A stretch of 64,000 bases of DNA. It comes from a virus. The stretch is taken from the IMG/VR virus record IMGVR_UViG_3300025000_000005, positions 26,779 to 90,778 of that record; one strand, 5' to 3'. The notes under the pieces were generated by a model that had not been told where the DNA came from, did not search any database, and saw only the letters and a list, made by a program, of their open reading frames with translations. Below are positions 308-18,551 of the stretch, piece by piece; the first letter of the stretch is position 1; every line of letters begins with the position of its first letter. The position numbers were made by a program, and so were the translations under genes.

Positions 308-354
308 TGGCTTTCTCCTTTTTTTACCTATTAACAGAAAAAATGAAAAAAACA

Positions 355-378
355 AATCTTTAAAGCTTTAAATCTTTA
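355..378 (-). promoter_or_regulatory. TAAAGNNN array, 3 units
   Basis: On the plus strand this reads AATCTTTA AAGCTTTA AATCTTTA, three exact 8-bp units. In the minus-strand sense each is TAAAGNNN. It overlaps the stop codon of the DarB-like gene (376-378) and lies about 50 bp upstream of the next minus-strand gene. It is one of twelve similar intergenic arrays in the window. Role unknown; upstream position suggests a promoter or leader element. Confidence 0.6.
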
Positions 379-3300
379 CGACATTATGGCGAAAATATCC
401 TTCAAGTCGGTTTTCGAGTCGATATACCAGTAGGCGCCGTTACTAAGTTCGCCAGCGCTCCCGGCGAAGAACTGAGCCCCATACCGAGCTTTCAGAATTT
501 CCTTCGTGCGGTATAGCACTCCTTGCTTGGCGTTTCTATCCAAAAAAAACCACTTAGAGAATGCCGCAACCGCGATATTCTTGTATTTGCCTTGAAGTGT
601 CACGTCCCGAGAGTTGATCTTCACCGTAATACCGAGCTGCGCGAAAGCGTTTTTAACCTCTTCCGGAATCTCTTTGTAATTTGGGTGCTGCTTTATCGCT
701 TCAGCGGCTTTTCGGTCCGCTTCGGCTTTTTCTTTTGCCATCTGGTCAAGAAGCGTGTCAAGCTGTTCGCGTCTGCACTTGTTGGCAATGGTCTCTATAT
801 CGCTTCTGTTATCCCCCAGGGCGGACGCCGCCACGGTAAGGTCGTTTTGGAATCCGTATCCGCCAAGGATGCTATGGATTTCGGACGGGCTGGCCTGGTT
901 GACTTTATCCCCAAGCTTATCATCAAGAAAATCGTTCACAAATTTCGCGTAAAATTCACGAATCTGTGTTTCGGTTGCCACCGTCCCGTACTGCATGACG
1001 GTTACCTTCCAGTCGGATCCAAAAACGGTGGCCACGATCCCGGTAACGGTAGAATCCACATAGTCATAAGCCGTCTTCATCTTGGCCGCCTCAAGATACG
1101 CCTCGCTCAGATTCTTTCGATACGTTTCGTTTGTCGGTTCAGGAAAAACGATATCAGCCTTATTTTCTATATAATAATTGTCCTGAAATGCGAAACCGTC
1201 GCCTTTCCGAACGAAAAATTTTCCATAGATCTTGATATCGGCTATGTTTTCGAAAAATGTCTGTTTATCAATATCAGCACTGCCGACCAGATCAATATAC
1301 CGGATCTCCTCGGACAGGAGCTTTTTGAGGGCCAACTCCTTTTCAGAGTACGAAACCTTGATCGCATCGTCCGGGAAATCAGTTAGCAGGATTACCGTTT
1401 TGCTCGACCCGTTGATCCTGATATATTCGGTCTCAATGAGACGATCAGATCCCATAATTACATCATACGTGAAAGCCTTTTGTGGTGACTGGAATGCGTC
1501 CGTAAGCTTGAAAATCACCATGCCGCGGCCGGTGCGCCGTTCATAGACATCGCCAGCAGCATAAACCTTTCCTGAAAGGGAGCATATCGCCTTTTCGGGA
1601 TGATCCAAAACCGAGGCATCAAAAGGAAGTTCCCCTTTTTTGCCTTTGGCCGTCAGCACATTCATGGATTGCTGCTTCTGCGCTTCGAGATGGACACGTT
1701 CCCGCTCAAAAGCTGCATCCAGGTCATCAAGATCGGCCTTGGCTTTTACGAGGGACTTTTTACCATCATTTATTCGCTTGGCCAGTTTTTTCTTTTCCGG
1801 ATCCTCGTCATCCATGGCGAGGCCTTTTTTCTTAAGCCGCTCAATCGTTTCGGTCAGGTTCTCAACTTTGGTGGTTAAATCCTGTTTCCGCTTAACCTTC
1901 GCCTCCCCGAGCCCGGAGAGCGCCTCGGTAACATTCCCAAGAAGTTGGAGCATATTGACAAGCCGCTTTCTCTCCCGTTCATCCCGTTCCGTATTTTTCT
2001 GAGCGAGTTTTTCAAGGCGCCGCTTCTTCGCCTCTTCCGGATTGTCGGCCAGCAAATCCAACATGTCATCGTCCGAAACAACATTCCCGTTGTCCGCCTC
2101 AATGTCGGTGCCGGTCAGGAGGTCCCGTATCCAGCTCGCCTTTCGCTTGAGGAGGTCCAGCCGGTAAAAGTCGAACGAATTTTTCCCGAGGTAATAATAA
2201 ATTTTGACGCTACTCGACGTGTTTCCCTGGCGGACACCGCGGCCGTTTCTCTGTTGAATCGATGCAGGTGTCCAGGGAAGCGTCAGGTGGTGAATCGCCG
2301 TGGTGCCCTTTTGCAGGTTTACACCGACCTCCGCCTTCTTATTTGCAATGACAAGCTTTATTTTCCCGGAATTGTAGTTGTCGGAGATCTTTTGCAATTT
2401 GGTCCCGGACGCTTCGTCCGCGTTGATAATCGCAATGACGTCACGCGATAGCGGCACGTGGTGGGACAAGATCCGTTTCAGCTTCCCGTGCTGTGATTTT
2501 TCTTCCGTGAAAACGACCTGCTTGCCATTAGCCTCAAGGTGGGCGCGGACATTTTCAACGAGTTTCGCGTATTTCGGAGGCAGGGGGTGAGATACGTCAT
2601 TTTCATCGATACCAACGACTGCGAGCTTTGAAATTACATGCGCCTCAAGCTCTTCGAAAGTTGTGAGGCAATAAGTATCGCCTTTTGTTTCAAGCTTGTT
2701 AACGACATCGACATCGACATCGACATCAATCGTTTTTCCTTCTTCGTCTTTCGCCTTGCGGGAAACCGTTTTAGGGAGTCCGGAAACTATCTTGTCGACC
2801 TTTTCCTTATCGGCCAGCTTGAAATAAAACGTCATGGTATGGGTATAGAGGTCCATGTCCGTGGTAACGCGGTCCATGTTTCTGATTATGGAAAACATGC
2901 TGATTTTTGATCCGGGTTTGGACGCTTCCTTCGCATCCTCCCTGAGATCCGCATAAACGTCCCCCTGCACTTCTGAAAGATCAACCTCTTCATTCGCCTC
3001 ATCGCTTCCGGGGAGTTCAAGACCTACATCATCCGCTGTTCGATAGAGCACGTATTTATGGAAAAGGTTCCGGAGACCATCAAGTTTTTTAAACCCGACA
3101 AGGCCATCCTTGGTTTTGATTTCACCGGAAACCATCACCTTGTCAACGGATTCTATCTTTCCGAAAGCTCTAACAAAATCATCAACGGTATAGACTCCGA
3201 ACCGTTCGAATTCCTCCATCGGCGCGACGAGCGATAGTACATTGTAGATTTCAAGGGGGGAGTTGGTAACCGGGGTCGCCGAAAGGGGATACACGCCCTT

Positions 3301-6300
3301 CCCGCCGAATCTTTCTTTCATGTACGCGGATTTGAGCTGCATATCAATTGCCCTCTGAGCGCTTTTAACAACCGAAAGGTAGGCAACGTCGCTGGTTTTC
3401 TCCCCAGATTTGAACGAATTCTTGTACTCGTGGGCCTCATCTATGATCACATTGGTAAAACCCATATCCTCAAAATAGGGAAGCTCACCCTTTTTGCGCG
3501 TTCCCTCATCCGAATACTTGGCTTCCGCCCGAAGTCCGGCCTTATCGTCATCATAGGTTTTCTTTTTTGATCCGCCGTCATCCTCAGCCACACCGTTTGC
3601 GCTTAAGGACTTAGCCATCTTGTCGCTGATCAAAGAGCGGTCCGACATCTTCTTGGCATACCTCGCTTTCGTGTCCGGCCGCATCGGTATTGACCCGAAT
3701 TTCGTGCTTGTCATCACCACAAGGGACTTGTTTGTGTTAGGTATTTCCCACATCTTGGCCCATATGTCATCAGGGTCTTTTTTGGTTATAAGGAGAGTTT
3801 GCTTCTCAACCTCGTTCGTGAATTTGTTGATTTTAGGGTTTCCAAACTCATCCTGGACAATTTCCTGCCGAGGCTTCCCGTTTTTGTCCAGCCTTGCCTC
3901 TATGCCAACGAAAAGTACGTCATCAATGTCGGTCACGAACTTATTTGTCTCATGATACCAGTTATTCAGGACCGCATCCGGAACGACTATACACGTCTTT
4001 TTAGTCCGCCCCATCTGTTTGTTGTAGAGGTGCAGGGCAATGGCCGAAAGGGTTTTCCCCAAGCCGACATCATCCGCCAGAATCCCGCCGCCCTCTTCTG
4101 AGAGCCTACGAATTGCCGAATATTGGTACCCGTGGGGTTTAATTCGGTCAGAGAAACCCTCTATATGCAAGGGCGAATCATCGTATTCGTGGGGGATGAA
4201 AGCATTGAATTTGCGGTTATAAACGGCCGCGACCTGCGCCATGTCCGGATGCTGCTGCATCCAGGCATTGAAGTTTTCAGTCGTTGCCTTTATCGCTTGC
4301 GTGTATGCCTCTCTTCGTTCTTGTGCGCCTTCTCCAGTCGGTGCGACATTATCCCCATTGAGAAACTTTAAGAACTGATTTTTGAATCCGGGCCCCTCGA
4401 TACCGATCCATTTGCCGAACGGGTTGTCAAAATCCTCAACGAACTTGTTTGCGGTTATCGTTTCACCTGTTACCGAATCCTCCTTCTCAACCTCTGCATC
4501 AGCCCCGAAGCTGGCATGCGGGTATCCGTTGGCCCTCAAAAACTCCACCAGGTATTTTTTAGGAAACCACTTTTCCTGCAATCCCAGATCGATATCTTCA
4601 GGTGGAGTCAGCTTTAATTTCGACTGAATGGTGTCGATTTGCTGCTGCCACTTTTCCTTGAGGCGGGAATCCTCCTCATCGGCCATCACTTGCGTTAGCT
4701 CGACCATCTTGGGGTACACATCGCCGGAGGCATACCGTCCCATAGGCATGATCATGCCGCTCGGCGCAATGGCAATACCATCGGCAGATGCCAGATCCCC
4801 CAGGTTCTCTATCGCCATTTTTCCGGTATAGATCTTCTTTACATCCTCAAGTTCAATATTTTGCATGCCTTCCCGGACATAAAGGTGCTCAACAATCGAT
4901 TGGATATTCGTGGAGTCGAAGGCCGTTCGATCCTCGGATAGCGTCCCAGCCAGCAGATCGGAAAAAACGCCTTTCTGATCGACCGAACTCAAAAACATCC
5001 CGAATGCGCGGGAGCTTTCACCGGTCAAGACGAGCCACTTACACCCTTTTGGATGCCCGTAGCGCTCGATCTCTGCCGCCACCATGCTTTGCAAGCGGTC
5101 TCTTTCCATGTCGTCAGAACTGGTTCTCAGCCTGCCTATGAGTCCGCCGATAACGGTCCCCCGGAAGGCCTGCTCCCTAAACTTGTCATCGGTCTGGCTC
5201 ATGGAAAATAAAACGGCATCGGTATGGAGGCTCGACAAGAGTTCCGGCCATGTCTTGTAAATGGCGAAGGCCTGCTCAGCCGTTAACTGCAATGCTCCAT
5301 CCGGGCTCGAAAGAATCGCTTTCAGGTCGTCAAGTGTCGCGGCGCCATATTTTTTCGCATCAAGCGCCATTCCGGAATCTGCCTGGATGGTTGCGACCCA
5401 CCTCCCCCCGATGAATTCACACTGCCGACCATTAATGATTCGGTGATCGCCCTCAACATAGGTTGGCGGATCCGCCGGCGCGACGTCCAGCATGTCCCAA
5501 TCGATTCTTGAGTCGAACCTGACCGCTATTTTCTGCTTCAGCGCGGCCGGGTCGATATCCCCGTCAACTACCTCCCGGCTCCATCGGTCGCCGTCGATTT
5601 TCGGGACGTAGGTCCCATGGATAAACTGCCGCCCCTCGCCCTGCCAGTACGACCCGTTTACGAATTCACCCCAAACCACTTTTGCATCTTGCAAGGTCTT
5701 GAAATCTATATTGTCTATCTTTTCAATCAGATCGGATGGATGCTTTTTAAAAACGATAATATCGACAACCGTGTCCGTTCCCTGAGCCCGGAATGTCTTT
5801 GATGGCAATTTATGAGCGCCCAGGAACTCGGCCTTTTTCGAAACGGCTATCCTGAATTGGTTCCATCGATCCGATTTATTGGTCAGGATATTCGTGGGGA
5901 CTACCAGGCACGCCAAACCGCCAGGGCGGGTCTTGTCCAATGCGCGGAGGATGAAATACCGCTCGATTCGTTTCTCGTTTTTATAGGCCGGGTCGTCATG
6001 GATCGATTTGCCGCGGGCATCCCCGAAAGGAACGTTCCCTATTACCGAATCAAAATGATTATCATCGGTTTTCCCTACGAGAGACTCGAAACTTCCGGTC
6101 CTTATCGAATCTTCAGGGTTAAAAAGCTGCGCTATTTTGGATCCAACCGGATCTATGTCCGTACCAGTCACAACCAGGCCGGCCGGTTTTGTGGACGGGA
6201 AAACGCCCGCACCCGTGCAAGGGTCCAAAATATTCCCGGCCGTAATGCCATACCCCTTCAAAATGTCCCACATTCCCTCGGCTACCGGAGTCGGCGTGTA

Positions 6301-6618
6301 ATATTCGAACTGTGAGTTTTCGGTAAGCCCGCCGCGGCCGGAATACTGCTTCAGAACGGCCGCGTCTTCATCCGACAGGTCGGCCGGGTCATGGACACGA
6401 TCGAGGATGTCTCGCGCCATGGCGTTCAGGTTTTCTCTGGCTTTGATACCACGGACCTTGAGCCCATAATCAGACGTGTCGGGCTTTGAATCGGATGGAA
6501 TACCCAGAATGGCCTTGAATGCCTGCGCCAGTTCATCGAATGTTTTTGCGCTTAAAATAGCGGAATTGCCTGGGAGTGCTTTTTCGAGGACCATATCGAA
6601 TAATTGTTGCTGTGGCAT
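376..6618 (-). CDS. darB: DarB-like anti-restriction protein: N6-adenine methylase fused to SNF2-type helicase
   Basis: This 2080-residue protein has the architecture of phage P1 DarB, a head-carried protein injected with the DNA that protects it from type I restriction. An N-terminal Rossmann methylase has motif I DPCTGAGVF near residue 131 and motif IV NVPFGD near 194 (an NPPY-type variant). A superfamily 2 helicase follows: Walker A in DDVGLGKT near 852, DEAH in IIDEAHEYKN near 1059, motif III in PLSATPVTNS, and motif VI in QRNGRGVRQG near 1458. A long charged coiled coil follows at about 1530-1660, then a C-terminal region I do not recognise. The terminator at 6645-6674 separates it from upstream genes. 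It lies about 5 kb from the DarA-like gene group, not next to it. Family assignment rests on domain order and size; the injected role is inferred. Confidence 0.85.
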   Translation of the reverse strand: MPQQQLFDMVLEKALPGNSAILSAKTFDELAQAFKAILGIPSDSKPDTSDYGLKVRGIKARENLNAMARDILDRVHDPADLSDEDAAVLKQYSGRGGLTENSQFEYYTPTPVAEGMWDILKGYGITAGNILDPCTGAGVFPSTKPAGLVVTGTDIDPVGSKIAQLFNPEDSIRTGSFESLVGKTDDNHFDSVIGNVPFGDARGKSIHDDPAYKNEKRIERYFILRALDKTRPGGLACLVVPTNILTNKSDRWNQFRIAVSKKAEFLGAHKLPSKTFRAQGTDTVVDIIVFKKHPSDLIEKIDNIDFKTLQDAKVVWGEFVNGSYWQGEGRQFIHGTYVPKIDGDRWSREVVDGDIDPAALKQKIAVRFDSRIDWDMLDVAPADPPTYVEGDHRIINGRQCEFIGGRWVATIQADSGMALDAKKYGAATLDDLKAILSSPDGALQLTAEQAFAIYKTWPELLSSLHTDAVLFSMSQTDDKFREQAFRGTVIGGLIGRLRTSSDDMERDRLQSMVAAEIERYGHPKGCKWLVLTGESSRAFGMFLSSVDQKGVFSDLLAGTLSEDRTAFDSTNIQSIVEHLYVREGMQNIELEDVKKIYTGKMAIENLGDLASADGIAIAPSGMIMPMGRYASGDVYPKMVELTQVMADEEDSRLKEKWQQQIDTIQSKLKLTPPEDIDLGLQEKWFPKKYLVEFLRANGYPHASFGADAEVEKEDSVTGETITANKFVEDFDNPFGKWIGIEGPGFKNQFLKFLNGDNVAPTGEGAQERREAYTQAIKATTENFNAWMQQHPDMAQVAAVYNRKFNAFIPHEYDDSPLHIEGFSDRIKPHGYQYSAIRRLSEEGGGILADDVGLGKTLSAIALHLYNKQMGRTKKTCIVVPDAVLNNWYHETNKFVTDIDDVLFVGIEARLDKNGKPRQEIVQDEFGNPKINKFTNEVEKQTLLITKKDPDDIWAKMWEIPNTNKSLVVMTSTKFGSIPMRPDTKARYAKKMSDRSLISDKMAKSLSANGVAEDDGGSKKKTYDDDKAGLRAEAKYSDEGTRKKGELPYFEDMGFTNVIIDEAHEYKNSFKSGEKTSDVAYLSVVKSAQRAIDMQLKSAYMKERFGGKGVYPLSATPVTNSPLEIYNVLSLVAPMEEFERFGVYTVDDFVRAFGKIESVDKVMVSGEIKTKDGLVGFKKLDGLRNLFHKYVLYRTADDVGLELPGSDEANEEVDLSEVQGDVYADLREDAKEASKPGSKISMFSIIRNMDRVTTDMDLYTHTMTFYFKLADKEKVDKIVSGLPKTVSRKAKDEEGKTIDVDVDVDVVNKLETKGDTYCLTTFEELEAHVISKLAVVGIDENDVSHPLPPKYAKLVENVRAHLEANGKQVVFTEEKSQHGKLKRILSHHVPLSRDVIAIINADEASGTKLQKISDNYNSGKIKLVIANKKAEVGVNLQKGTTAIHHLTLPWTPASIQQRNGRGVRQGNTSSSVKIYYYLGKNSFDFYRLDLLKRKASWIRDLLTGTDIEADNGNVVSDDDMLDLLADNPEEAKKRRLEKLAQKNTERDERERKRLVNMLQLLGNVTEALSGLGEAKVKRKQDLTTKVENLTETIERLKKKGLAMDDEDPEKKKLAKRINDGKKSLVKAKADLDDLDAAFERERVHLEAQKQQSMNVLTAKGKKGELPFDASVLDHPEKAICSLSGKVYAAGDVYERRTGRGMVIFKLTDAFQSPQKAFTYDVIMGSDRLIETEYIRINGSSKTVILLTDFPDDAIKVSYSEKELALKKLLSEEIRYIDLVGSADIDKQTFFENIADIKIYGKFFVRKGDGFAFQDNYYIENKADIVFPEPTNETYRKNLSEAYLEAAKMKTAYDYVDSTVTGIVATVFGSDWKVTVMQYGTVATETQIREFYAKFVNDFLDDKLGDKVNQASPSEIHSILGGYGFQNDLTVAASALGDNRSDIETIANKCRREQLDTLLDQMAKEKAEADRKAAEAIKQHPNYKEIPEEVKNAFAQLGITVKINSRDVTLQGKYKNIAVAAFSKWFFLDRNAKQGVLYRTKEILKARYGAQFFAGSAGELSNGAYWYIDSKTDLKDIFAIMS

Positions 6619-6644
6619 TTTGCCTCGCGTGGTATGAAGGGGTT

Positions 6645-6674
6645 TAAAAAATGCCGCCCGTGGTTGGGCGGCAT
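6645..6674 (-). terminator. rho-independent terminator
   Basis: A 9-bp perfect inverted repeat (ATGCCGCCC, 6-base loop, GGGCGGCAT) is followed on the minus strand by a run of six T. It closes the transcript carrying 6704-7605 just before the DarB-like gene. Confidence 0.8.
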
Positions 6675-6703
6675 CTATAATTTTATTGGAAAATCTTTAG
6701 CTT

Positions 6704-7027
6704 TTAATACGAAAACACGACCGCGGGAGAATCCTTGTTTGGTTTAAACCGGCAATCCCTAACCGCATCGTCAGGCCATTCCATGTTCCCGGAACCGGAA
6801 TGGCTTGCGACAATTTCGGCGGAAGGTGCCGCCTCATCAGCATCCGATTCTACCAAACACCATTTTGAAGTTACAGGATCGAAAACAAAGACTGCCGGGA
6901 AAGCAGAATCTCCGGATAAAGAAACGACTGTGTCGTTCCGGTCCCCCAAAAATCCGGGCGGTGCGCCCAAAAACATAACGAAAAATGCCAGAAAAACGCC
7001 GATCAGAAATAAGCTCTTTCTTTTCAC
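6704..7027 (-). CDS. small exported or membrane-anchored protein
   Basis: This 107-residue protein begins with two basic residues and a long hydrophobic stretch (about residues 5-25, LFLIGVFLAFFVMFLG). That indicates a signal peptide or single membrane anchor. The rest is acidic and soluble-looking with two cysteines. Its start overlaps the stop of the upstream hydrolase gene by 4 bp, so the two are translationally coupled. A terminator follows. No family recognised; it may act with the hydrolase at the cell envelope. Confidence 0.7.
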   Translation of the reverse strand: MKRKSLFLIGVFLAFFVMFLGAPPGFLGDRNDTVVSLSGDSAFPAVFVFDPVTSKWCLVESDADEAAPSAEIVASHSGSGNMEWPDDAVRDCRFKPNKDSPAVVFSY

Positions 7028-7605
7028 GACCCCTCCTTTGAACAGGTAAAAGTGTTATTGATTCCCTTCCACGTACCTTCAAACGCTATTCGATAAATCG
7101 CTGTTCGGTCCCGGGCATAATCCTCCAGCATCGCTGGCGTTGTGCCTCTCCAAAAACACACCCTGCTCTGAATCTTCTCACAAAAAGCAACTACTTCAGA
7201 ACATATCGCCCGAGACCCGATCCCTATTTTGGATAACCACGGGAAAATAATTGAAGAAAGCCCTAATAGTATCAGTCTGGCTACCGGGTAATGGTCCCCG
7301 TCGAACATTTCTTTCGTTTCTTTGTATGCGGCATCAAAGCTGAGATCCCCGCCGACCGGCTCAACAATCATCACCTTCGCCCCTATATAGTCGTCTATGC
7401 CTGCCCGATATTCGCGGGTTTTCAGCCTGGCCGCAAAAGTATCCCCGAATGGGGTAACGATAATTTCCGCATGCCCATATTCAGCGCGGCTATCGGGTTC
7501 CCGGATCTTCTGGCCCGCGATAATAACCTTTGCCAGCAGTGAGCTTTTCCAGTCGGTACCGCCCACTCCGGATGTCAGAAGGAAACTGCCCGGTTTAAGT
7601 TCCAT
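7024..7605 (-). CDS. NlpC/P60-like (permuted papain fold) hydrolase
   Basis: The 193-residue protein resembles YiiX/YebB-type permuted NlpC/P60 enzymes, thiol hydrolases that act on peptidoglycan or amide bonds. A GHAEIIV motif near residue 45 supplies the likely catalytic His. A later CSEVVAFC segment near residue 134 supplies the likely Cys. The His-before-Cys order fits the permuted group. A hydrophobic patch lies in between (VARLILLGLSSIIFPWL). It follows a fibre cassette, so a role in host entry or late envelope modification is possible. Fold assignment is by motif only. Confidence 0.6.
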   Translation of the reverse strand: MELKPGSFLLTSGVGGTDWKSSLLAKVIIAGQKIREPDSRAEYGHAEIIVTPFGDTFAARLKTREYRAGIDDYIGAKVMIVEPVGGDLSFDAAYKETKEMFDGDHYPVARLILLGLSSIIFPWLSKIGIGSRAICSEVVAFCEKIQSRVCFWRGTTPAMLEDYARDRTAIYRIAFEGTWKGINNTFTCSKEGS

Positions 7606-7630
7606 CGAGTGCAGAGCCTTTCAATAAAGA

Positions 7631-7662
7631 TTAATTTAAAAATTTATATCATTAAAACTTTA
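7631..7662 (-). promoter_or_regulatory. degenerate TAAAGNNN array, 4 units
   Basis: Plus strand TTAATTTA AAAATTTA TATCATTA AAACTTTA. The 8-bp phase is kept although only the last unit has the full CTTTA core. It lies 26 bp upstream of the NlpC/P60-like gene. Confidence 0.45.
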
Positions 7663-7698
7663 TTTGTGTGAAAAAATCAAGCCCAAAATGAGCGGGAA

Positions 7699-7744
7699 TA
7701 AAAACACCATGCCAATTTGCCTGTAAGTGATAGAATTGGCATGG
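7699..7744 (-). terminator. rho-independent terminator
   Basis: An 11-bp perfect inverted repeat (7707-7717 and 7734-7744, arm CCATGCCAATT) is followed on the minus strand by TGTTTTTATT. It lies just after the 114-residue fibre-associated gene. The paralogous gene at 25621 has a hairpin in the same position. Confidence 0.75.
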
Positions 7745-7766
7745 CGCTCAAATTGGATCGTGGCAT

Positions 7767-8111
7767 TTATGCAGGGTCACTCAGACCGAAAGTCGCCGCG
7801 GTAAGCCGGTATATTCCAGCCGCGCCGTAGACCTCCGCCGTAACATCGTCTCGCGCGATGAGCGCACCACCGGTTAATGCGTTATAGTACCCCACATAAT
7901 TCACAGTCGCACCCGCCTCAATGGCGAACTCCAATGCAGGATCACAATCGCCTGCCACCGACCCGTCAGCAGGCGTCCCCAAAGTAATAGCCTGCCTGGT
8001 CGCCAGTTCGGTTCCGGCCGCGGCAGGGTCCCCATTGCAGGGCGCACAGTGCGTAATCCCGGTTGCTGCAAGCATATTGTTTTTTCCGGTTGCAGTAAAT
8101 CCCATAGCCAT
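7767..8111 (-). CDS. small fibre-associated structural protein, copy A
   Basis: The 114-residue protein is a close paralogue of the protein at 25621-25962. Both begin M(A/T)MGFT(A/V)TGKNNML and end in a near-identical segment (TAEVYGAAGIYRLTAATF). The fold is predicted beta-rich. In both places it follows a large repeat-rich fibre gene and precedes a hairpin, so it is probably a fibre tip, cap or chaperone. DNA identity is highest over 105 bp (7788-7892 against 25639-25743, 2 mismatches). Precise function unknown. Confidence 0.7.
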   Translation of the reverse strand: MAMGFTATGKNNMLAATGITHCAPCNGDPAAAGTELATRQAITLGTPADGSVAGDCDPALEFAIEAGATVNYVGYYNALTGGALIARDDVTAEVYGAAGIYRLTAATFGLSDPA

Positions 8112-8137
8112 AATATCACCTCTTAATTATTAGAATG

Positions 8138-10414: not shown

Positions 10415-10803
10415 TAGCTATCCGTTATCTTCAGCCCTTCCCATGAGCCGGAGAGGGTTATATCTTGAGCAGCAGAATTGCCATTGTAAACGCCTATTTC
10501 AGCGTAATTAAATTTCTCAAGCCGAACCGTGATTATTTTCGTTGTGCTCACGGTATAAGCAACGCTGTTCAAGTCAATAGCCTGATCACTGTCAGTTGTT
10601 CCGCCATCGGCGCTCACCCGGCATTTGATAGTTGCGTTACCGTCAGCAGCATTGCCGAACGCTATTGATAGCTGGATGTTCACATAATCAAAAAACGCAC
10701 CTGCACCCGCGCTGATAGGAGCCCATCCGGTGACGGTTTTAGCTGGCGTACTGTCATCAAAAGTAAGCGAGTTTCCGCTTGTATGATCAAGAGTAAATGC
10801 CAT
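10414..10803 (-). CDS. hypothetical virion-associated protein
   Basis: The 129-residue, beta-rich, Ser/Thr/Asn/Gly-rich protein is overlapped at both ends by neighbours in the fibre cassette. Segments such as SWEGLKITDS resemble small fibre or decoration proteins, but I recognise no named family. Its place directly before the fibre gene suggests a fibre partner or connector. Confidence 0.65.
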   Translation of the reverse strand: MAFTLDHTSGNSLTFDDSTPAKTVTGWAPISAGAGAFFDYVNIQLSIAFGNAADGNATIKCRVSADGGTTDSDQAIDLNSVAYTVSTTKIITVRLEKFNYAEIGVYNGNSAAQDITLSGSWEGLKITDS

Positions 10804-11126
10804 TATAGATTCCCCTCCACATGACTGACGACATCGGCAATGATCTCGTCGATTGACTGCTTGCCAGTTTTTGCCAGCACCGATGTCATATTGATGATGA
10901 AAAGCGAAACAATTTCTTGCGCCTTTCTGAGTAATTCAGCTTTCATCAGCGGATACCAATCAGATGAATCAGCCACCTCACGTTTACCGGAAAAGGAATC
11001 AGACCAAAGAACTTGCCCGGTTCCTGACTCTTCATTGTAATCGTCTGTTGCGATCTGGACGGAAGCAGAAAACGTGATCGTTCCGTTTGAGTATGACCAG
11101 TTAGGGCTCACTATTTTTATTTGCAT
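10803..11126 (-). CDS. hypothetical protein
   Basis: The 107-residue protein has a beta-rich first half (NWSYSNGTITFSASVQIATDD) and a helical second half ending in DEIIADVVSHVEGNL. Stop and next start overlap by one base, so it belongs to the same fibre operon. Function not recognised. Confidence 0.65.
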   Translation of the reverse strand: MQIKIVSPNWSYSNGTITFSASVQIATDDYNEESGTGQVLWSDSFSGKREVADSSDWYPLMKAELLRKAQEIVSLFIINMTSVLAKTGKQSIDEIIADVVSHVEGNL

Positions 11127-11335: not shown

Positions 11336-11349
11336 AGAACGGTTGTATA

Positions 11350-11381
11350 AAACTTTTTTTATTTATTACTTTAAATCTTTA
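11350..11381 (-). promoter_or_regulatory. TAAAGNNN array, 4 units
   Basis: Plus strand AAACTTTT TTTATTTA TTACTTTA AATCTTTA, in strict 8-bp phase. It sits between the stop of the 553-residue protein (11407) and the start of the fibre operon (11335). Confidence 0.55.
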
Positions 11382-11406
11382 TGCGAAGGCAAGCGGAAAT
11401 GCCGCT

Positions 11407-13068
11407 TTAAATGCCTGGCTTTATTTCTTCCGGAATCTCGGCATCCTGCATCTTTCGCCATTCGTCCGCAACAAGGCTTGATAATCCATCGGGAATATCG
11501 GCTATGTCGTTGAATTTCCAAACATCCCCCATTTTGTCTAACCGCCATGCCCATTCGGCGGCCTGAACCTTTGAGGCAATTCCCCTGCCGACAGCCCTAC
11601 CTGTTGGAAGATGGGTTACCGACCACTGAGATCCCCTACCATCCTCCTTATGCACTGCGAAAAGCTCACCATATCGCCACCCCGACACGGTTCTTTTCCC
11701 GCCGCCATCGGGATTAGCATCCCAAGCGGTTGAATACTCATGCTTTTTAAGCTTTATGTTTTTAAAAAAAGCTTCCAGGATCGGGCGGTTTTCGGATCGT
11801 TGCTTTTTTACTCGCTCATCATGCTCAACCGTTGCGGCAAGCTCTTTGCGTTCAGCCTCTTCTTTTTCGGCCTTGGCCTTTAATTCGCGCTTAAACGGAT
11901 CGAGAATATTTTTTTTGATTTCGGGAATCAGATTATCGAGTGCAAAAAAACGGCCATCACGAATATACCGGCCGATATCACCGAGATATCCTTTGGCCGC
12001 CGTATATCTCCCGTGTAAAACCCTGTTTTTTTGCGGGTCAACATAAGGGACATCGTGCATGGTATTGATAATCCCGGCGTATTTCTCGGCGGCTGCATAA
12101 AGATGAGCAGGCGCAATTTTTTTGAACACGGGAATGTTTTTGGAACTTCCGGATACTATGGCATCAACAATCGCATTTACCATTGCCGCATCGGGGGTGA
12201 CCCCACTGCCGATATCATAGCTCGGCACAGTCGCGATATCGACCTTATCGTTTTCATCCCACAAGGATGCTCTTCGGATAACATAGCCATAATACCCGAC
12301 CCCACGGGAAAGAATCAGCGCATTATATATTCCGGGCTTTATTTCCATTCGCCCCAGCTCAATGAAATTTTCCTTTTGCGCCCTTTCCGATAATCGATTT
12401 TCTGCGCGTTCTCGAAGGTCTTTTTTACCATCCTCCGTTTCGAACCATTCTATATCCTCTCGCAAACGGTCCTTTCTTTCACGGTCAAGTTTTGATCTCT
12501 TAGGCCATAGAGATTGCAGTTCGGACTTGAAGCCATCAACTATTTTTACGGACTCGGTATAGATTTCCAGCTTAGTCGGTTTTGGTGGGTCTGGAAGCTC
12601 TGGCATCGTCTCCAACTTATAGTCCAAAAGCCCTGCACCGATAAAAGCGCGTTTTATATCATCCACGCTCCCGGCATTTCGGATATCATCACGCCAATAA
12701 TAACCGGCAGACTCGGCAACCAACTGCATAGGCCCATCATCAACCGGAATATCCTCCGGCAGAAACCCCTCAACGAGATCAAAACTTAAAATCAAGTCCG
12801 GATTTGCCATCAAAAGCGCATTGTAAATGTCGGCCGGCGGTGAATTTTGAAGACTTACCGGTTTTCCGGTCATTCCTATAGCCCCAGCCGAGAAGAGCGC
12901 CTCAAGGCATCGCATGGCGCCCACGCTCCCCATGTCATCAACCGTAACAGGCGCCGGAACGTCCCACTGCGTTTCTTCGGTCCGGATAACGGCGTACCCG
13001 GCCGTAGTGGCCACGAAAAACCGGTATTCACTTTCGGGGTAAATAATATCGTCTTCTAAAAATTGCAT
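11407..13068 (-). CDS. large hypothetical protein of the Dar-like module
   Basis: The start at 13068 is chosen because the upstream stop TAA directly touches it (TAATATG). This gives 553 residues; a longer frame would run into the metallopeptidase gene. The protein has a charged coiled-coil middle (about 215-260 and 410-450). Its C-terminal domain (WRYGELFAVHKEDG, SVTHLPTGRAVGRGI, AAEWAWRLDKMGDVW) looks like a small alpha/beta module. It is adjacent to a metallopeptidase and a DarA-like protein, which suggests a virion-internal protein in the same set, as P1 packages several Ddr proteins. Family not recognised. Confidence 0.65.
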   Translation of the reverse strand: MQFLEDDIIYPESEYRFFVATTAGYAVIRTEETQWDVPAPVTVDDMGSVGAMRCLEALFSAGAIGMTGKPVSLQNSPPADIYNALLMANPDLILSFDLVEGFLPEDIPVDDGPMQLVAESAGYYWRDDIRNAGSVDDIKRAFIGAGLLDYKLETMPELPDPPKPTKLEIYTESVKIVDGFKSELQSLWPKRSKLDRERKDRLREDIEWFETEDGKKDLRERAENRLSERAQKENFIELGRMEIKPGIYNALILSRGVGYYGYVIRRASLWDENDKVDIATVPSYDIGSGVTPDAAMVNAIVDAIVSGSSKNIPVFKKIAPAHLYAAAEKYAGIINTMHDVPYVDPQKNRVLHGRYTAAKGYLGDIGRYIRDGRFFALDNLIPEIKKNILDPFKRELKAKAEKEEAERKELAATVEHDERVKKQRSENRPILEAFFKNIKLKKHEYSTAWDANPDGGGKRTVSGWRYGELFAVHKEDGRGSQWSVTHLPTGRAVGRGIASKVQAAEWAWRLDKMGDVWKFNDIADIPDGLSSLVADEWRKMQDAEIPEEIKPGI

Positions 13069-13069
13069 A

Positions 13070-14890
13070 TTACGCCGCATTCGCCTCCGCACGGGGAAGA
13101 AGGGTTGTGTCAATTTCGGGAACTCCGCCCTTTTGGGCTTTGTCGATAAAATGATCCTGCAACATTGAGCGCTCTTCGATGTATTGGCGAATGCCATGCG
13201 CCCACTGAATAGCGGTATCTCTACCATACTGATTATACGAAAAAACAAGCATATACAGCCCCATGCGTAATTCTTTTTGGGACGTGAAAAGCGTTACGAA
13301 AGCCCCGTCAAGTATCACCTGAAACCGGTTATCAGCCCCGAGGCTCGGCTTTGATTTCCAGGAAGATACGGCAATGATGGTTCCAGCTATCTTCTGCTCA
13401 ATATCAGCACTCTTTTTCTCAAGCACGGAATAAAAGGCCTCGCTCAATTTCGCCTTTTGTTTTTCATTCTCGATCATCGATTCCTGCTTTGCCAGGACCT
13501 CTTTTTCGACGGTCCCAAGTGGAGCCTTCATGATTCCGAGTATGAGCTGAAAAAGCTCAGAGTCTTTCTCGTAAAGGAAAGCCATTCCGTCCGCGGTCGC
13601 AAACTGCTGCATGCCCATGCTGCACACCTCGGTAACGCCAGAGGAATACCGCTTCCCAACATAGGGATGGAAGAAGTCATCTTCAAAGGCGACCTCTCCA
13701 CCACGGTAAGCCTTATTGCCGGTAAGCCGACTCAATTTTACCGGAGGCGCCATCCTCCCGCCCGTCCTTTTATCGAGATATTGATTCGTTGCCGACTTAA
13801 CCCTGGCATTATTTTCAAGTATGTGGCCCATTTCGTGAAATAGTGTCGTTTTCGAAAAGTTCCCGTCCAGGTAGATGGTCCCGGTATCCGAGTTGGCGCA
13901 TGCCCTGCGATGCCCCTTCGTGACGATATTCACTTTCGGTGCCCGGCCGCCGACCAGCCTATAGAACTCGGCCATGTCTTTTTTTAGGGTCTCGACCGGA
14001 TATCTGATCTTTTTCAGCCTTGCCTTTGAGCTGGCCGTAATTTCCTGGCTATTCGCCCATGCTTCGGCCTGATCGGCTGTCACGGGAGATGCTGAAAGCA
14101 CGGTCGCCATTACGGCATCCTTAAATTCTGCCTTTTCGGCGTCGCTTTTTTCTTTCAGGGCTACAAGGCGCTCTTCCAGCGGCGCCACCTTTTCACGCAC
14201 CGAAGCGTTAATTCCGGCTTGAAGGTCATAAAGCTTTTCGAGGAAGGCCTCCATTTTTGGTTTCAGATCCCTCGTTTCCGCCTCTCTCCACGCCCTCAAC
14301 TCTCTAAGCTTTTCTGTATAATTTTCAGATCCAATAGTGATACCAACCGAACGTTCCAAATCGCTGACCTTTTTTCTGTAATCAATCTCGATCGATGTCA
14401 ACTTGGTGTTCACCTGCTCATAATCCGAGTTTTCCCTCAACGCATCAGCCGTCTTGTTGAGCGCCTCTTGGTGCTTGGCGTAAATCTCCTTAATTTCGAT
14501 AGAAACGGATTCCATTTCCGCCCGACTTTTTGACTGCAAAATCTTATCGGCACCTTCAATGATTTTCCCTGATTCAAGAAAATGGTCAAAAGTTAATGAG
14601 CCCATAGACGCCTTCGGACTCAATTCCGATATTTCCCTCAAAACATCTTCACGCTCAACCCCGACAGCTCGATAGGAATTCCCGCCGCGATTGCCTATCG
14701 GAATAAGTAGTTCCCACCGTTCAAGGGGATCATCTGTCGCGCGGGCTTTTTCGAGATGGTCCAATATTGATTTGCCCTCGTTGTAGTGGCTCACCCATGA
14801 ATCATAGCCGATACCGATATAAGAGCTAAATACGAGTGCCAATGACTCAAAGGACTGCGCTTCTCTCACCCTGTCGGCAACCGTCACCAT
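13070..14890 (-). CDS. zincin-type metallopeptidase of the Dar-like module
   Basis: The 606-residue protein has a coiled-coil first half (about residues 110-270) and a gluzincin-like catalytic core. The HExxH motif is in TTLFHEMGHILEN near residue 350. A possible third ligand, Glu, is in SSGVTEVCSMGMQQ near residue 420. A CANSDTGTIYLDGNFS strand precedes the zinc helix, as in other zincins. It lies between the 553-residue protein and a 109-residue protein with near-zero spacing. It could process or be packaged with the DarA-like proteins, or act after injection. The motif supports a zinc protease; the substrate is unknown. Confidence 0.75.
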   Translation of the reverse strand: MVTVADRVREAQSFESLALVFSSYIGIGYDSWVSHYNEGKSILDHLEKARATDDPLERWELLIPIGNRGGNSYRAVGVEREDVLREISELSPKASMGSLTFDHFLESGKIIEGADKILQSKSRAEMESVSIEIKEIYAKHQEALNKTADALRENSDYEQVNTKLTSIEIDYRKKVSDLERSVGITIGSENYTEKLRELRAWREAETRDLKPKMEAFLEKLYDLQAGINASVREKVAPLEERLVALKEKSDAEKAEFKDAVMATVLSASPVTADQAEAWANSQEITASSKARLKKIRYPVETLKKDMAEFYRLVGGRAPKVNIVTKGHRRACANSDTGTIYLDGNFSKTTLFHEMGHILENNARVKSATNQYLDKRTGGRMAPPVKLSRLTGNKAYRGGEVAFEDDFFHPYVGKRYSSGVTEVCSMGMQQFATADGMAFLYEKDSELFQLILGIMKAPLGTVEKEVLAKQESMIENEKQKAKLSEAFYSVLEKKSADIEQKIAGTIIAVSSWKSKPSLGADNRFQVILDGAFVTLFTSQKELRMGLYMLVFSYNQYGRDTAIQWAHGIRQYIEERSMLQDHFIDKAQKGGVPEIDTTLLPRAEANAA

Positions 14891-14891
14891 A

Positions 14892-15221
14892 TTAAAGGCC
14901 CTCTATACGCTTTTCGATATACCGGATAGTGGGCGGCTTCACAGGCTCAACATCCTTGATCTCATCCACAATTTCCTTCAGGATGCTCAAAAATCGAATC
15001 GGTGTTTCATCGTCAAATTTCCCGGAGATAAGATCCTTCAACTTCTGGTTTTCATCCCCGGCTCCGGTGTCCAGCTTCTCATCAAGCTGCTTTAAAAGCT
15101 CTCCGATCTCGCGCCGAACCGCGTTTTTCTCTTTAAAACTGAGCGTCCCGGCTTCCAGCTCGCTCAGTTTTGCGCCGATCTGCTTCCGGATCTGGTTTCT
15201 TTCCTTGAATGATAAGGCCAT
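14892..15221 (-). CDS. small coiled-coil protein with an internal duplication
   Basis: The 109-residue helical protein contains the same motif twice in its first 45 residues: LSFKERNQIRKQIGAKLSEL and LSFKEKNAVRREIGELLKQL. This helix-turn unit is likely a short oligomerisation or targeting module. Its C-terminus is extended and basic (KPPTIRYIEKRIEGL). The next gene starts two bases after its stop. Function unknown; tight coupling to the metallopeptidase suggests a partner or chaperone. Confidence 0.65.
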   Translation of the reverse strand: MALSFKERNQIRKQIGAKLSELEAGTLSFKEKNAVRREIGELLKQLDEKLDTGAGDENQKLKDLISGKFDDETPIRFLSILKEIVDEIKDVEPVKPPTIRYIEKRIEGL

Positions 15222-15235
15222 GGTGCGATTCTCCT

Positions 15236-17947
15236 TTAAGCCGCGGCTTTCTTGGTCAGTGCGGTTGCGTAAGCGTCAACTTTTTCCATCAGGTCGGCGT
15301 ATTGATCTTCCGGAAGGTCAAAGACTTGTTCAATCACATCGGCAAGGGCGCCCGGTGTCAAGTGATCGTATTTCCCGGAAAGGACGTCATTGGCCACGGT
15401 TACCGCCGCGAGTTCTTGCGGTTCGACAGACGGGGAGGGTTCGGGTTCGTTCTGGTCGGGTACCGGGGTTGGTTCCGGTTCTATTACCGGTTCGGGTTCT
15501 GGCTCGTTTTGCTCGGCAGGCGGGACGATTGGTTCCGGTTCAGGCGCGGGCTCTGGCTCAGGCACAGAAGCGGACTTTTCTTGAAGGTATTGAGCATAAT
15601 CCATGCCGGTTTTGGTTAATGATTTCTCGGTCAAAAAGGCGCCGTCATCAGTCGTAAAAAAACGCTCACCGTCGCGCATAACTACCTTGCGGCCAGCGCT
15701 GATTTCCGACTCGACCTTTCCCTTTATGGTCATGACAACGCCATCAAATCTTCGTTGAGAGTTGAGGTTGACCAGGGTCTTCTCTTTTCGCATCGGGTCC
15801 ATGCCGTCTGTAAATCCGTTCACGTTTTCGAATTCCTTTCGAGCCTCATCTGCACGCGACTTCCCTTCCGCATCTCGCACCGCCTGCTCTTTCCTCGACT
15901 TACTATTGGCAGTATCGACCTCTATCATCCTGTCTATCTGATCGACGGGAATAAGTTCAGTAAACCCAAGCTCCATCCAGCTCGACTTTACACCGTAAGC
16001 CCACTTCCCGCCGTCAAACTCGAAAGACGAAATCGTCCTGGTACCATCGGGGTATGCCTCCCACGAAAACCCTATGTCGTATTTTTGCTCGGGCTTTTGC
16101 GGTTCTTCGACGCTCTTATTGGGAGGTTCTTCCCCCTCGACCCAACCCTTATCAAACCCCTGACTCAAAAGATTCTTAGAGAACGTGTTCGCCCAGCTTC
16201 TTTCCGGCCGGCCAACCTTGGTGCGCCGGACCTCCCCAAGCGGACCGCGATAGGCAATACCGCTCAACCGAAGGCGCCCGGTATCAGCGCTGGTCGTAAA
16301 AACCATTTCCGAGTCGGTCACAAGGTCGCCGTTCATTTCAATGTATTGCGTAAAATAAATCACCCGTTGTCCGTCCGGGCCTTCATCACGCGCTTCTATG
16401 ACAAGATCAGTATAAGATCCGCTCTTGACCTTCCGGTGGAAATCCCCATCCATTACCGAGGCTTCATACCCGAGGCTATAGAGAAGCTTCGCGGCGCGTT
16501 GGGCGGGCATACCATCGGTTTGATCTGCTGGCGGCAAGACGGGAACGATAGGGGCTTTCCCCTCTTCTTTTGGCATTGTTTCATCGGCCTTTTTCTCCTC
16601 GGCAGGCAACGCGGCCATGATGGATTCCTTCACAGCCTCAACCGTCACATTCAGCGACCCACCAGGAGTGTGCGGATCTCCATTTACCTGAACCACGCCG
16701 CCGCCAGAAACATGCAACCGAAGCTCGGTGCCATTAATGGTAAGGGTCGTCTTTTCCCACTCGCCAAGCCTGTTTTTATCTGGTTCCCATGTGCCCAGGA
16801 CTCCCCCGAGATCTTTCACAACGGCATCGATGTTGGCCTTGCCTTCAGAGATACGGCTTTCAACTGGCAAGGGGTCAGGCTTCGTAACCTCAGTCGATGC
16901 CGCCGTTTCATCTTCGGCCGGACCTTCATCGGCAGGCAATGGATCTGTCAGCACGATTCTGTTTTCAGCCTTCAATTGGTCCACATATTTATCCCATTCG
17001 GCCTGTGTGATCTCGCCCTTGTCCAGCAACTCGGCCATAATCCCGGCCTGTTCAAGGTCCTGGAGGCGTAACCCCGGGACGCGCTCTGCCCCCAATGCTA
17101 CTCGGCGATTGTATTCTGACACCTTGCTGTCACTGGCGGCCTGCTCATCCCTCCTAATTTTCAAAGCGTCAATCTCAGCCCGCAAATCGGCATTGCTCTG
17201 TTTTACTTTTTCCAGCCTCGCCGAAGCGTCTTTGATATCCGCATCAACACTACCGGACCGTTCGGTAAGCGCCGATACCTCATCCAAAATGGATAGCCGT
17301 TGAGCCTCAAGGGCATCAATATTTTGCGTCACCTCTGCCAATTCCGCCTTTTGCGCCGCAACGTCCCCTTGGCCTTTCTGAAACGCCTCGGAATTCTTAG
17401 CCGCGAGTTGCATCAGCCGGATACATGTCTGCTCCAAAGAGACGTCCTTCCCGGATTCAGGGGAAACGACATGCGTGATATCCTTTTTGTTCAGCTTCCA
17501 GGCAAAGGCAACGATGGTATCGTCCGGCAAGATCTTCTTGTCGTTTCCGCCCGGGGCATGGAAGAGGATGCTGATCACCTGCCCGTCTGACAGCGGTATC
17601 TGGACCGTAACCGTTGCGAACAAACCGGACTTTCGAGGCGTACCGATAACAGGCGCCGCCGCAACAATCCCGGATTCGCCATGCTTATTGAGGGATTTCA
17701 CCAGGGCAAGCATTTTCGCCTCGGTATTGGCAAACCGCTTTACCCGGACCGACTCGACTATGATATCCTCACCGGCATTCCATGCATCATCAATATCGGA
17801 AAAGGACGCCGATTCGCACAACAGGCGGGCATCCTCCGGATCAGCCGACAACCCGTAATAGATGGTATTCATCTCCTGGTCCGAATACCCTTTTGCAAAG
17901 AAATCGACTCCGGTCAGTATACGGACACCATCATGTAGGGGATTCAT
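15236..17947 (-). CDS. darA: DarA-like protein (defence-against-restriction family)
   Basis: The start at 17947 follows a good AGGAGG site and gives 903 residues. Residues about 90-185 match what I know of the DarA N-terminal domain in P1-like phages: PLSDGQVISILFHAPG, then LNKKDITHVVSPESGKDVSL, then RLMQLAAKNSEAFQ. A coiled coil follows (about 195-290). Later come further alpha/beta segments and a long Glu-Pro linker of repeated EPEP near residues 790-840, then a helical C-terminus. In P1, DarA is packaged in the head and needed for DarB incorporation. The role here is inferred from that family. It lies about 9 kb away from the DarB-like gene in the direction of transcription. Confidence 0.7.
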   Translation of the reverse strand: MNPLHDGVRILTGVDFFAKGYSDQEMNTIYYGLSADPEDARLLCESASFSDIDDAWNAGEDIIVESVRVKRFANTEAKMLALVKSLNKHGESGIVAAAPVIGTPRKSGLFATVTVQIPLSDGQVISILFHAPGGNDKKILPDDTIVAFAWKLNKKDITHVVSPESGKDVSLEQTCIRLMQLAAKNSEAFQKGQGDVAAQKAELAEVTQNIDALEAQRLSILDEVSALTERSGSVDADIKDASARLEKVKQSNADLRAEIDALKIRRDEQAASDSKVSEYNRRVALGAERVPGLRLQDLEQAGIMAELLDKGEITQAEWDKYVDQLKAENRIVLTDPLPADEGPAEDETAASTEVTKPDPLPVESRISEGKANIDAVVKDLGGVLGTWEPDKNRLGEWEKTTLTINGTELRLHVSGGGVVQVNGDPHTPGGSLNVTVEAVKESIMAALPAEEKKADETMPKEEGKAPIVPVLPPADQTDGMPAQRAAKLLYSLGYEASVMDGDFHRKVKSGSYTDLVIEARDEGPDGQRVIYFTQYIEMNGDLVTDSEMVFTTSADTGRLRLSGIAYRGPLGEVRRTKVGRPERSWANTFSKNLLSQGFDKGWVEGEEPPNKSVEEPQKPEQKYDIGFSWEAYPDGTRTISSFEFDGGKWAYGVKSSWMELGFTELIPVDQIDRMIEVDTANSKSRKEQAVRDAEGKSRADEARKEFENVNGFTDGMDPMRKEKTLVNLNSQRRFDGVVMTIKGKVESEISAGRKVVMRDGERFFTTDDGAFLTEKSLTKTGMDYAQYLQEKSASVPEPEPAPEPEPIVPPAEQNEPEPEPVIEPEPTPVPDQNEPEPSPSVEPQELAAVTVANDVLSGKYDHLTPGALADVIEQVFDLPEDQYADLMEKVDAYATALTKKAAA

Positions 17948-17948
17948 A

Positions 17949-18551
17949 TTATGCAGCCTCCTGTAATTCGGACAGCTCGGCCCGAAGGGTTTCATTCGTT
18001 TTGTTCTCCACCTCAAGCTCGGCCATGATCCCGGAATAATCGGACATTTTTACGTCAACCGTTCCCTTGATTTCGGCCAGAGCGACCTTAATCTCCTCGG
18101 TTTCCACCGTAACGGTCTCAAGCTCGGCCTTTTTATCCGCAAGCTGCTTTTTTGTGCTGGTTGAAACGGCCGGCGTCCCGCCCTGCTCTTTTTTGAGCGC
18201 CCGCTTCCGCCGCTGCTTAAGGTAGGTCGATTCGTTCTTTTTCAAATACCCGGCAATTTCCCCAATCGCCTTCGCAAGCTCACCAGCTTCGGATATGTCG
18301 GCATGCTTGATCGGCACCACCTTGCTGTTGATCCTCGCCTGGAAGATCGACCCGTTCCCCTTGATTTTAAGCACCAGCTTTTGGCCCGACTCAAAAGTGA
18401 TGGTCGCCGTTTTTACGGAAAATCCATCTTCTCGCTTCGGCATGTTCGGGGCATCGACTTTGGCAATCACCTGCCCGTGCTTTTGGGTCAGAGCGTCCGT
18501 GATGGGGGATAGCCCCTTCTCGTTGAAATTCGTGAAATTAATTTTGTCCAT
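17949..18551 (-). CDS. Dar-module protein with DarA-type beta domain and coiled coil
   Basis: The 200-residue protein has an N-terminal beta-rich domain (TATITFESGQKLVLKIKGNG, ARINSKVVPIKHADI). This resembles domains in DarA/Hdf-type proteins next to darA in P1-like elements. A Lys/Arg segment and a coiled coil (about 130-198) follow. It starts after a GGAG site and ends one base before the DarA-like start. It is likely co-packaged or an assembly factor for that system. The family link is tentative. Confidence 0.6.
   Translation of the reverse strand: MDKINFTNFNEKGLSPITDALTQKHGQVIAKVDAPNMPKREDGFSVKTATITFESGQKLVLKIKGNGSIFQARINSKVVPIKHADISEAGELAKAIGEIAGYLKKNESTYLKQRRKRALKKEQGGTPAVSTSTKKQLADKKAELETVTVETEEIKVALAEIKGTVDVKMSDYSGIMAELEVENKTNETLRAELSELQEAA

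What the first reader, a model, noticed from the sequence alone, without database searches (positions are those of the whole stretch)
376..18551. P1 Dar-like anti-restriction module, split and joined to a zinc peptidase
A DarB-sized methylase-helicase (376-6618) and a DarA-like protein (15236-17947) occur in the same phage. The group between 11407 and 18551 adds a HExxH peptidase (13070-14890), a 553-residue protein, a duplicated-motif helix protein and a DarA-type domain protein. In P1 several Dar/Ddr proteins are packed into the head. Here the peptidase sits in the operon, which suggests processing or an injected protease. The fibre cassette and an NlpC/P60-like hydrolase lie between the two halves. 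The whole may be a head-injected defence-evasion set with members not yet described.
Basis: partly seen in the sequence, partly recalled or inferred. Interest (0 to 1): 0.85.

Follow-up and report, generated by a model that had tools for sequence, protein, structure and literature searches.

The report
Divergent P1 Dar system, shared tag
This virus, a distant relative of phage P1, carries all six genes of P1's set of head-packaged proteins that shield its DNA from bacterial restriction enzymes, and comparing them exposes a short shared sequence that may be the tag by which cargo proteins are loaded into the virus head.

Summary
The contig (90.8 kb; window = last 64 kb) is a distant P1-like phage-plasmid. 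All six P1 Dar genes are present: Hdf 17949-18551, DarA 15236-17947, DdrA 14892-15221, a DdrB-type metallopeptidase 13070-14890, DarB 376-6618, and Ulx (from 355 leftwards out of the window). The "split" is P1's own gene order plus a fibre cassette. The "zinc peptidase" is the C-terminal half of P1 DdrB as a separate protein; the ParB half is absent. In relatives the stand-alone peptidase is the rule and P1's fusion the exception.

New here: (1) the 553-residue protein belongs to an unnamed family found beside the peptidase or fused to DarB; (2) DarB, the peptidase/ParB proteins and the 553-residue protein share a 17-residue two-helix motif. In P1 DarB it overlaps the 30 N-terminal residues shown to target the capsid, where the authors found no consensus among Dar proteins. 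In this genome the three best sites are exactly these three proteins. A shared head-loading tag is the best explanation but unproven: a P1 DarB deletion (11-30) removing most of it was tolerated.

The parts
17949..18551 (-). Hdf homologue, 200 aa
   Evidence: PHROG 1620 'Hdf-like antirestriction' E 5e-34; DarA_N E 7e-7; 30% identical to P1 Hdf
15236..17947 (-). DarA homologue, 903 aa, with an extra C-terminal DUF6908 domain
   Evidence: DarA_N E 2.5e-30, DUF6908 E 2e-12; PHROG 1926 E 4e-52; matches P1 DarA structure 9ukm E 4e-25
14892..15221 (-). DdrA homologue, 109 aa, internally repeated
   Evidence: PHROG 1855 'DdrA-like' E 4e-8; family profile across relatives
13070..14890 (-). Stand-alone DdrB-type zincin metallopeptidase, 606 aa (HEMGH 352-356, E421)
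   Evidence: Aligns with P1 DdrB 781-989, E 5e-9; H352, E353, H356, E421 invariant in 11 and 18 relatives; no Pfam hit
14819..14869 (-). Copy of the shared motif in the peptidase, aa 8-24 VREAQSFESLALVFSSY
   Evidence: Score 20.4 with a matrix lacking window and P1 copies; helix-turn-helix in the model
11407..13068 (-). 553-aa protein of an undescribed family in the Dar neighbourhood
   Evidence: N-domain recurs after the peptidase in G001, G002, G004 and other contigs and at the N-terminus of Vibrio DarB; no Pfam family above cut-off
12634..12684 (-). Copy of the shared motif in the 553-aa protein, aa 129-145 IRNAGSVDDIKRAFIGA
   Evidence: Score 21.6, second best site in the genome; no member of this family was in the training set
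376..6618 (-). DarB homologue, 2080 aa: N6-methylase plus SNF2-type helicase
   Evidence: 36.8% identical to P1 DarB over about 1590 aa; SNF2 E 3e-20, Eco57I methylase E 8e-7; PHROG 10089 'DarB-like'
6508..6558 (-). Copy of the shared motif in DarB, aa 21-37 ILSAKTFDELAQAFKAI
   Evidence: Score 22.9, best site in the genome; aligns with P1 DarB aa 8-24, inside its known targeting region
1..355 (-). Ulx homologue; continues left of the window, ends in L005 at 6676
   Evidence: 37% to P1 Ulx, E 5e-12; ORF in L005; PHROG 1629 'Ulx-like' E 9e-25
6704..11126 (-). Fibre/lectin and small-gene cassette lying between the two Dar groups; not part of the Dar system
   Evidence: 8138-10414 Laminin_G_3 E 2e-9; absent between the same genes in Photobacterium toruni

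Best explanation
It is the Dar system of a distant P1-like phage-plasmid. Hdf and DarA line the inner capsid wall (shown in P1, inferred here) and act as the platform on which DdrA, the metallopeptidase, the 553-residue protein, DarB and Ulx are loaded. Loading of the large cargo is most likely directed by a shared short two-helix motif, present once near the start of DarB and of the peptidase and at residue 129 of the 553-residue protein. On infection the cargo leaves with the DNA, and DarB, a methylase coupled to an SNF2 translocase, protects the incoming DNA in cis from type I restriction. The peptidase is a free protein here, so it cannot act only by cutting its own ParB half: it must act in trans on other cargo in the head or be an injected protease. 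Shown: gene content, order, homology, conserved catalytic residues, the shared motif. Inferred: virion location, motif function, antirestriction, peptidase target.
For: Six of six P1 Dar families in P1 order, in a genome with P1-type portal, Pro, capsid and ParA. P1 Dar proteins are in the virion and co-ejected (PMC9024508; PMC12810830). Motif: DarB-only matrix ranks two stand-alone peptidases and the Aeromonas DdrB directly after DarB among 461 genes; held-out genomes: nine best of 229 genes are all Dar; cross-family AUC 0.92 and 0.90; separate alignments show it in both families; three best sites of this genome are DarB, the 553-aa protein and the peptidase; rare elsewhere, 8 of 1465 unlabelled proteins reach score 16, of which at least three are broken Dar cargo. 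In P1 DarB it overlaps residues 1-30, sufficient for head entry while 1-9 are not.
Against: P1 DarB lacking residues 11-30 is still packaged, although deletions 16-30 and 21-30 block it. P1's own copies score only 12-15, close to background. Co-occurrence of the motif in DarB and peptidase over 21 genomes is borderline, Fisher p 0.053. An unbiased motif search over all peptidase N-termini did not recover it. The more distant Rb1-type branch has Dar genes without a recognisable motif. Nothing about virion content or restriction was measured for this phage.
Confidence: 0.85

Rival explanations
1. The shared motif is not a loading tag but a recognition or cutting site used by the metallopeptidase or by Pro to release modules of large polyvalent proteins.
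For: Several copies lie at module boundaries in polyvalent proteins: P1 DdrB 7, 459, 559; G002 335, 983, 1801; G001 180, 1156. Iyer et al. propose processing of such proteins by the zincin domain.
Against: Single-module proteins (peptidase aa 8, DarB aa 8-21) carry it at the very N-terminus, where a cut would release nothing. P1 DdrB is processed to about 76 kDa, which fits cuts at none of its copies. Residues 1-30 of P1 DarB target a reporter to the head.
Confidence: 0.15
2. The motif is only a common helix-capping pattern or the relic of a shared linker, with no signalling role.
For: The pattern S/T-x-x-E/D before an amphipathic helix is a generic helix start (general knowledge); the P1 deletion 11-30 is tolerated; P1 copies are weak.
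Against: Control genes of the same genomes rarely reach the scores; two unrelated protein families keep it near their N-termini over large divergence.
Confidence: 0.35
3. The peptidase is itself an injected effector that cuts host defence proteins, rather than an assembly factor or cargo processor.
For: It is a separate polypeptide with conserved HExxH and E421 and its own copy of the motif; several genomes have no ParB half for it to cut.
Against: No target is known; P1 DdrB aids loading of DarB, an assembly role.
Confidence: 0.3
4. DarA and Hdf serve only head building here and the other genes are decaying passengers without antirestriction function.
For: DarA and Hdf affect head formation in P1; the ParB half of DdrB is missing.
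Against: All six frames are open; GLGKT, DEAH and HExxH motifs are intact; the set is kept in order across distant replicons.
Confidence: 0.07

Closest known systems
Phage P1 Dar system (hdf, darA, ddrA, ddrB, darB, ulx)
   Same: All six gene families, the same order within each group, next to P1-type portal and Pro
   Different: About 27-37% identity; DdrB reduced to the peptidase half; DarA longer with a DUF6908 domain; an extra 553-aa protein; fibre cassette between the groups; dUTPase gene between ulx and portal
Dar regions of the Vibrio p0908, V. vulnificus p48/10 and Photobacterium toruni phage-plasmids (the related pVv01 is an inducible P1-like phage, PMC4132613)
   Same: hdf-darA-ddrA-peptidase-darB-ulx-portal-Pro; peptidase without ParB; closest capsid proteins
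   Different: Their DarB carries the 553-type N-domain plus InPase at its N-terminus; here the 553 protein is separate and lacks InPase
Polyvalent proteins (Iyer et al. 2017, PMC5512222)
   Same: Peptidase, methylase-helicase, DarA_N, and in relatives ddrB-ParB, InPase, RelA/SpoT and LPD3 modules
   Different: In this genome the modules are separate genes; the shared short motif is not mentioned in the passages read
Capsid targeting sequence of P1 DarB (PMC9024508)
   Same: The motif covers P1 DarB residues 8-24, within the sufficient residues 1-30
   Different: Those authors found no consensus among Dar proteins; deletion 11-30 was tolerated
T4 internal-protein capsid targeting sequence
   Same: A short N-terminal sequence loads injected anti-restriction proteins into the head (as cited in PMC9024508)
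   Different: No sequence comparison was made here; analogy only

Membership tests
P1-type Dar system | Hdf present | tested here: met
   PHROG 1620 E 5e-34
P1-type Dar system | DarA present | tested here: met
   DarA_N E 2.5e-30; P1 DarA structure 9ukm E 4e-25
P1-type Dar system | DdrA present | tested here: met
   PHROG 1855 E 4e-8
P1-type Dar system | DdrB with ParB and peptidase halves | tested here: inconclusive
   Peptidase half present; ParB half not found in the contig; relatives show both fused and separated forms
P1-type Dar system | DarB methylase-helicase | tested here: met
   36.8% identity over about 1590 aa
P1-type Dar system | Ulx directly after DarB | tested here: met
   PHROG 1629 E 9e-25
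P1-type Dar system | Gene order hdf-darA-ddrA-ddrB and darB-ulx | tested here: met
P1-type Dar system | Proteins packaged in the head and ejected with DNA | not testable with these tools
   Inferred from P1
P1-type Dar system | Protection from type I restriction | not testable with these tools
Zincin metallopeptidase of polyvalent proteins | HExxH plus conserved third ligand | tested here: met
   H352, E353, H356 and E421 invariant; no significant fold match, coiled coil dominates the model
P1 DarB capsid targeting sequence | Lies in the first 30 residues of DarB, suffices for head entry, shared by Dar cargo | tested here: inconclusive
   Position and sharing supported; function untested, and the tolerated P1 deletion 11-30 disagrees

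The most novel reading that the evidence does not exclude
A 17-residue two-helix motif, roughly h-x-x-A-x-S-h-x-E/D-L/I-x-x-h-F-x-x-h (h = hydrophobic), is the common head-loading signal of the large Dar and polyvalent cargo proteins of P1-like phages. It probably docks on the DarA-Hdf layer, travels with domains when they fuse or split, and marks the 553-residue protein as a seventh, undescribed Dar cargo. It would be the common capsid-targeting sequence that the P1 authors expected but did not find.
Probability: 0.42. Interest if true: 0.72.

Novelty: new variant of a known kind. Interest (0 to 1): 0.5.

Why it matters
P1 is the model for phages that inject a protein payload to survive restriction, and its head has been proposed as a delivery vehicle. 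A shared loading signal would let one predict from sequence which proteins of P1-like phage-plasmids are packaged, and it makes the open question of a common Dar capsid-targeting sequence testable with point mutants in laboratory P1. The free-standing peptidase, found here and in most relatives, means that self-cleavage of DdrB cannot be the general job of that domain.

Tried and rejected
Fold search of the peptidase model against the PDB gave only coiled-coil matches, none significant, so the zincin assignment rests on sequence. Fold search of the 553-aa model: nothing significant in the PDB; in the viral library one hit below 0.001 (G9BWG8, unnamed) and weaker uncharacterised ones. tblastn of the 553-aa protein found nothing in phages and the pattern scan nothing in IMG/VR; profile search within fetched loci was needed. 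Planktothrix phage PaV-LD has peptidase domains but no 553-type or Dar neighbours in the stretch read. An unbiased Gibbs search over 80 peptidase/ParB N-termini did not recover the motif: many of those proteins belong to the branch without it, and the DarB set was thinned to nine; the claim therefore rests on cross-family and held-out tests, whose starting motif was picked by eye. Co-occurrence across 21 genomes was borderline. The idea that DarA carries the same motif at about residues 40-56 is weak (AUC 0.71) and is not claimed. Piya et al. 2017 is not held.

Full report
What the sequence is. The window is the last 64,000 bases of a 90,778-base IMG/VR virus contig. The genome carries P1-type portal (PHROG 1497, E 2e-143), a P1-type Pro gene (PHROG 1801; its label 'tail fiber' is also what the P1 RefSeq record gives for pro), P1-type capsid (PHROG 1014), contractile sheath, baseplate wedge and a ParA gene. 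The capsid protein is 41-43% identical to those of the Vibrio p0908 group and about 30% to P1. It is therefore a distant P1-like phage-plasmid.

All ORFs are at the stated places. A sixth gene, Ulx, begins at 355 and runs out of the window. The 606-residue HExxH protein aligns with residues 781-989 of P1 DdrB, the region already described as a zincin peptidase by Iyer et al.. H352, E353, H356 and E421 are invariant in alignments of 11 and 18 relatives. So the peptidase 'joined' to the Dar genes is the P1 gene ddrB without its ParB half; a search of the whole contig with the ddrB-ParB profile finds nothing, while the same search finds it in two relatives.

Gene order. P1 has hdf-darA-ddrA-ddrB in one group and darB-ulx in another. 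The same order recurs in the P1-like replicons examined. In Photobacterium toruni all are contiguous: hdf-darA-ddrA-peptidase-darB-ulx-portal-Pro. In the window a fibre/lectin cassette and small genes (6704-11126) lie between the peptidase side and DarB. The split is thus not a new arrangement.

How DdrB varies. Fused ParB plus peptidase: P1, Cronobacter JK004, Pantoea BIM B-2003, Acinetobacter venetianus, Aeromonas salmonicida, IMG/VR locus L109. ParB alone: D6. Peptidase alone: window, G004, Vibrio p0908 and p48/10, P. toruni, Spartinivicinus, Citrobacter, Pantoea CCBC3-3-1 and most of about 50 IMG/VR contigs with Dar neighbours. Both separate: Vibrio THAF191d, G001, and G002, where the ParB half is fused to the front of DarB in a 3886-residue protein that also carries InPase and RelA/SpoT domains. 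A free peptidase cannot be explained by self-cleavage of DdrB alone.

The 553-residue protein. It has no Pfam family above cut-off and only a marginal PHROG hit. Its N-terminal domain (residues 11-104, modelled with pLDDT about 90; the rest of the model is poor) recurs directly after the peptidase in about a dozen contigs, in a separate 231-residue protein in Spartinivicinus, and at the N-terminus of DarB in Vibrio and P. toruni. In several relatives it is followed by an InPase domain. It is a regular member of the Dar neighbourhood without a name in the libraries searched.

A shared motif. The N-termini of DarB and of the peptidase, which are unrelated proteins, look alike: DarB ILSAKTFDELAQAFKAI, peptidase VREAQSFESLALVFSSY. 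The resemblance was first seen by eye and then tested. A matrix trained on seven DarB copies only, run over the first 130 residues of 461 genes, gives as best non-DarB hits two stand-alone peptidases (20.6 and 20.2) and the Aeromonas DdrB (17.0), with a 99.9% shuffle level of 13.0. In six further genomes the nine best of 229 genes are six DarB, two peptidases and D6 DarA. Scored by the matrix of the other family, DarB reaches AUC 0.92 and DdrB-type proteins 0.90 against other genes (p below 1e-9); portal, Pro and Ulx are at chance and Hdf, DdrA and DarA weak. DarBs are related to each other, so these p-values overstate independence. Separate alignments show the motif as majority consensus in both families. 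With a matrix free of window and P1 copies and of 553-family copies, the three best sites in the whole window genome are DarB aa 21 (22.9), the 553-residue protein aa 129 (21.6) and the peptidase aa 8 (20.4). Over 1465 unlabelled proteins (361,346 residues) eight reach 16, and at least three of these look like broken ends of Dar cargo. Large polyvalent proteins have several copies at module boundaries.

Link to known function. In P1 the first 30 residues of DarB carry a reporter into the head and the first 9 do not; the authors suspected a common targeting sequence among Dar proteins but BLAST found none (PMC9024508). The motif in P1 DarB spans residues 8-24. Deletions 16-30 and 21-30 blocked packaging, but deletion 11-30 did not; the authors ascribe the conflict to folding. 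This is the main evidence against a loading signal and is unresolved. P1 copies are weaker than those of the other replicons, which may be why they were not seen.

Most likely working. Following P1: DarA and Hdf pair on the inner capsid wall, all other Dar proteins depend on them, DarA is trimmed by Pro, and the set leaves with the DNA. I propose that DarB, the peptidase and the 553-residue protein are recruited through the motif, that DarB protects incoming DNA from type I restriction, and that the peptidase acts in trans inside the head or after injection. The first part is well supported by homology; motif function and peptidase role are inference.

Verdict. A complete, divergent member of the P1 Dar system with a variant DdrB and an undescribed extra gene: by itself of moderate interest. 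The confidence of 0.85 refers to the Dar identification; the loading-signal reading is put at 0.42. The comparison yields a testable candidate for the common Dar loading signal, which raises the interest.

Noticed in passing
L004 13115-13678 (contig 26115-26678): A dUTPase gene (PHROG 135, E 3e-46) sits between ulx and the portal gene, where P1 has none.
   Followed up: no
window 47170-48483: A second DNA methyltransferase gene (PHROG 67, E 7e-66) besides DarB.
   Followed up: no
L004 252-2051: A 599-aa transposase-like protein (PHROG 506, E 5e-16), probably an inserted element in the left part of the contig.
   Followed up: no
window 7024-7605; L009 5587-6117: The 193-aa hydrolase-like protein has a 28% identical relative directly upstream of hdf in L009, where P1 has its lysis genes; it may be a lysis protein rather than part of Dar.
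   Followed up: partly
L026 10205-17247 and 6791-8553 (Vibrio vulnificus p48/10): DarB is split into two overlapping frames and the peptidase frame lacks its N-terminus, which lies in a neighbouring frame: frameshifts or sequencing errors.
   Followed up: partly
L041 9088-10308 (phage D6 pmgS-like): The PmgS-like protein, annotated as putative prohead scaffold, gives a weak hit to the Hdf profile; may be coiled coil only.
   Followed up: no
window 15236-17947, C-terminal half: DarA carries DUF6908 (E 2e-12), also present in the G004 relative but not in P1 DarA; role unknown.
   Followed up: no
window 7767-8111: A 114-aa protein between fibre genes resembles PHROG 240 'head protein' (E 2e-15), possibly a decoration-type protein.
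   Followed up: no
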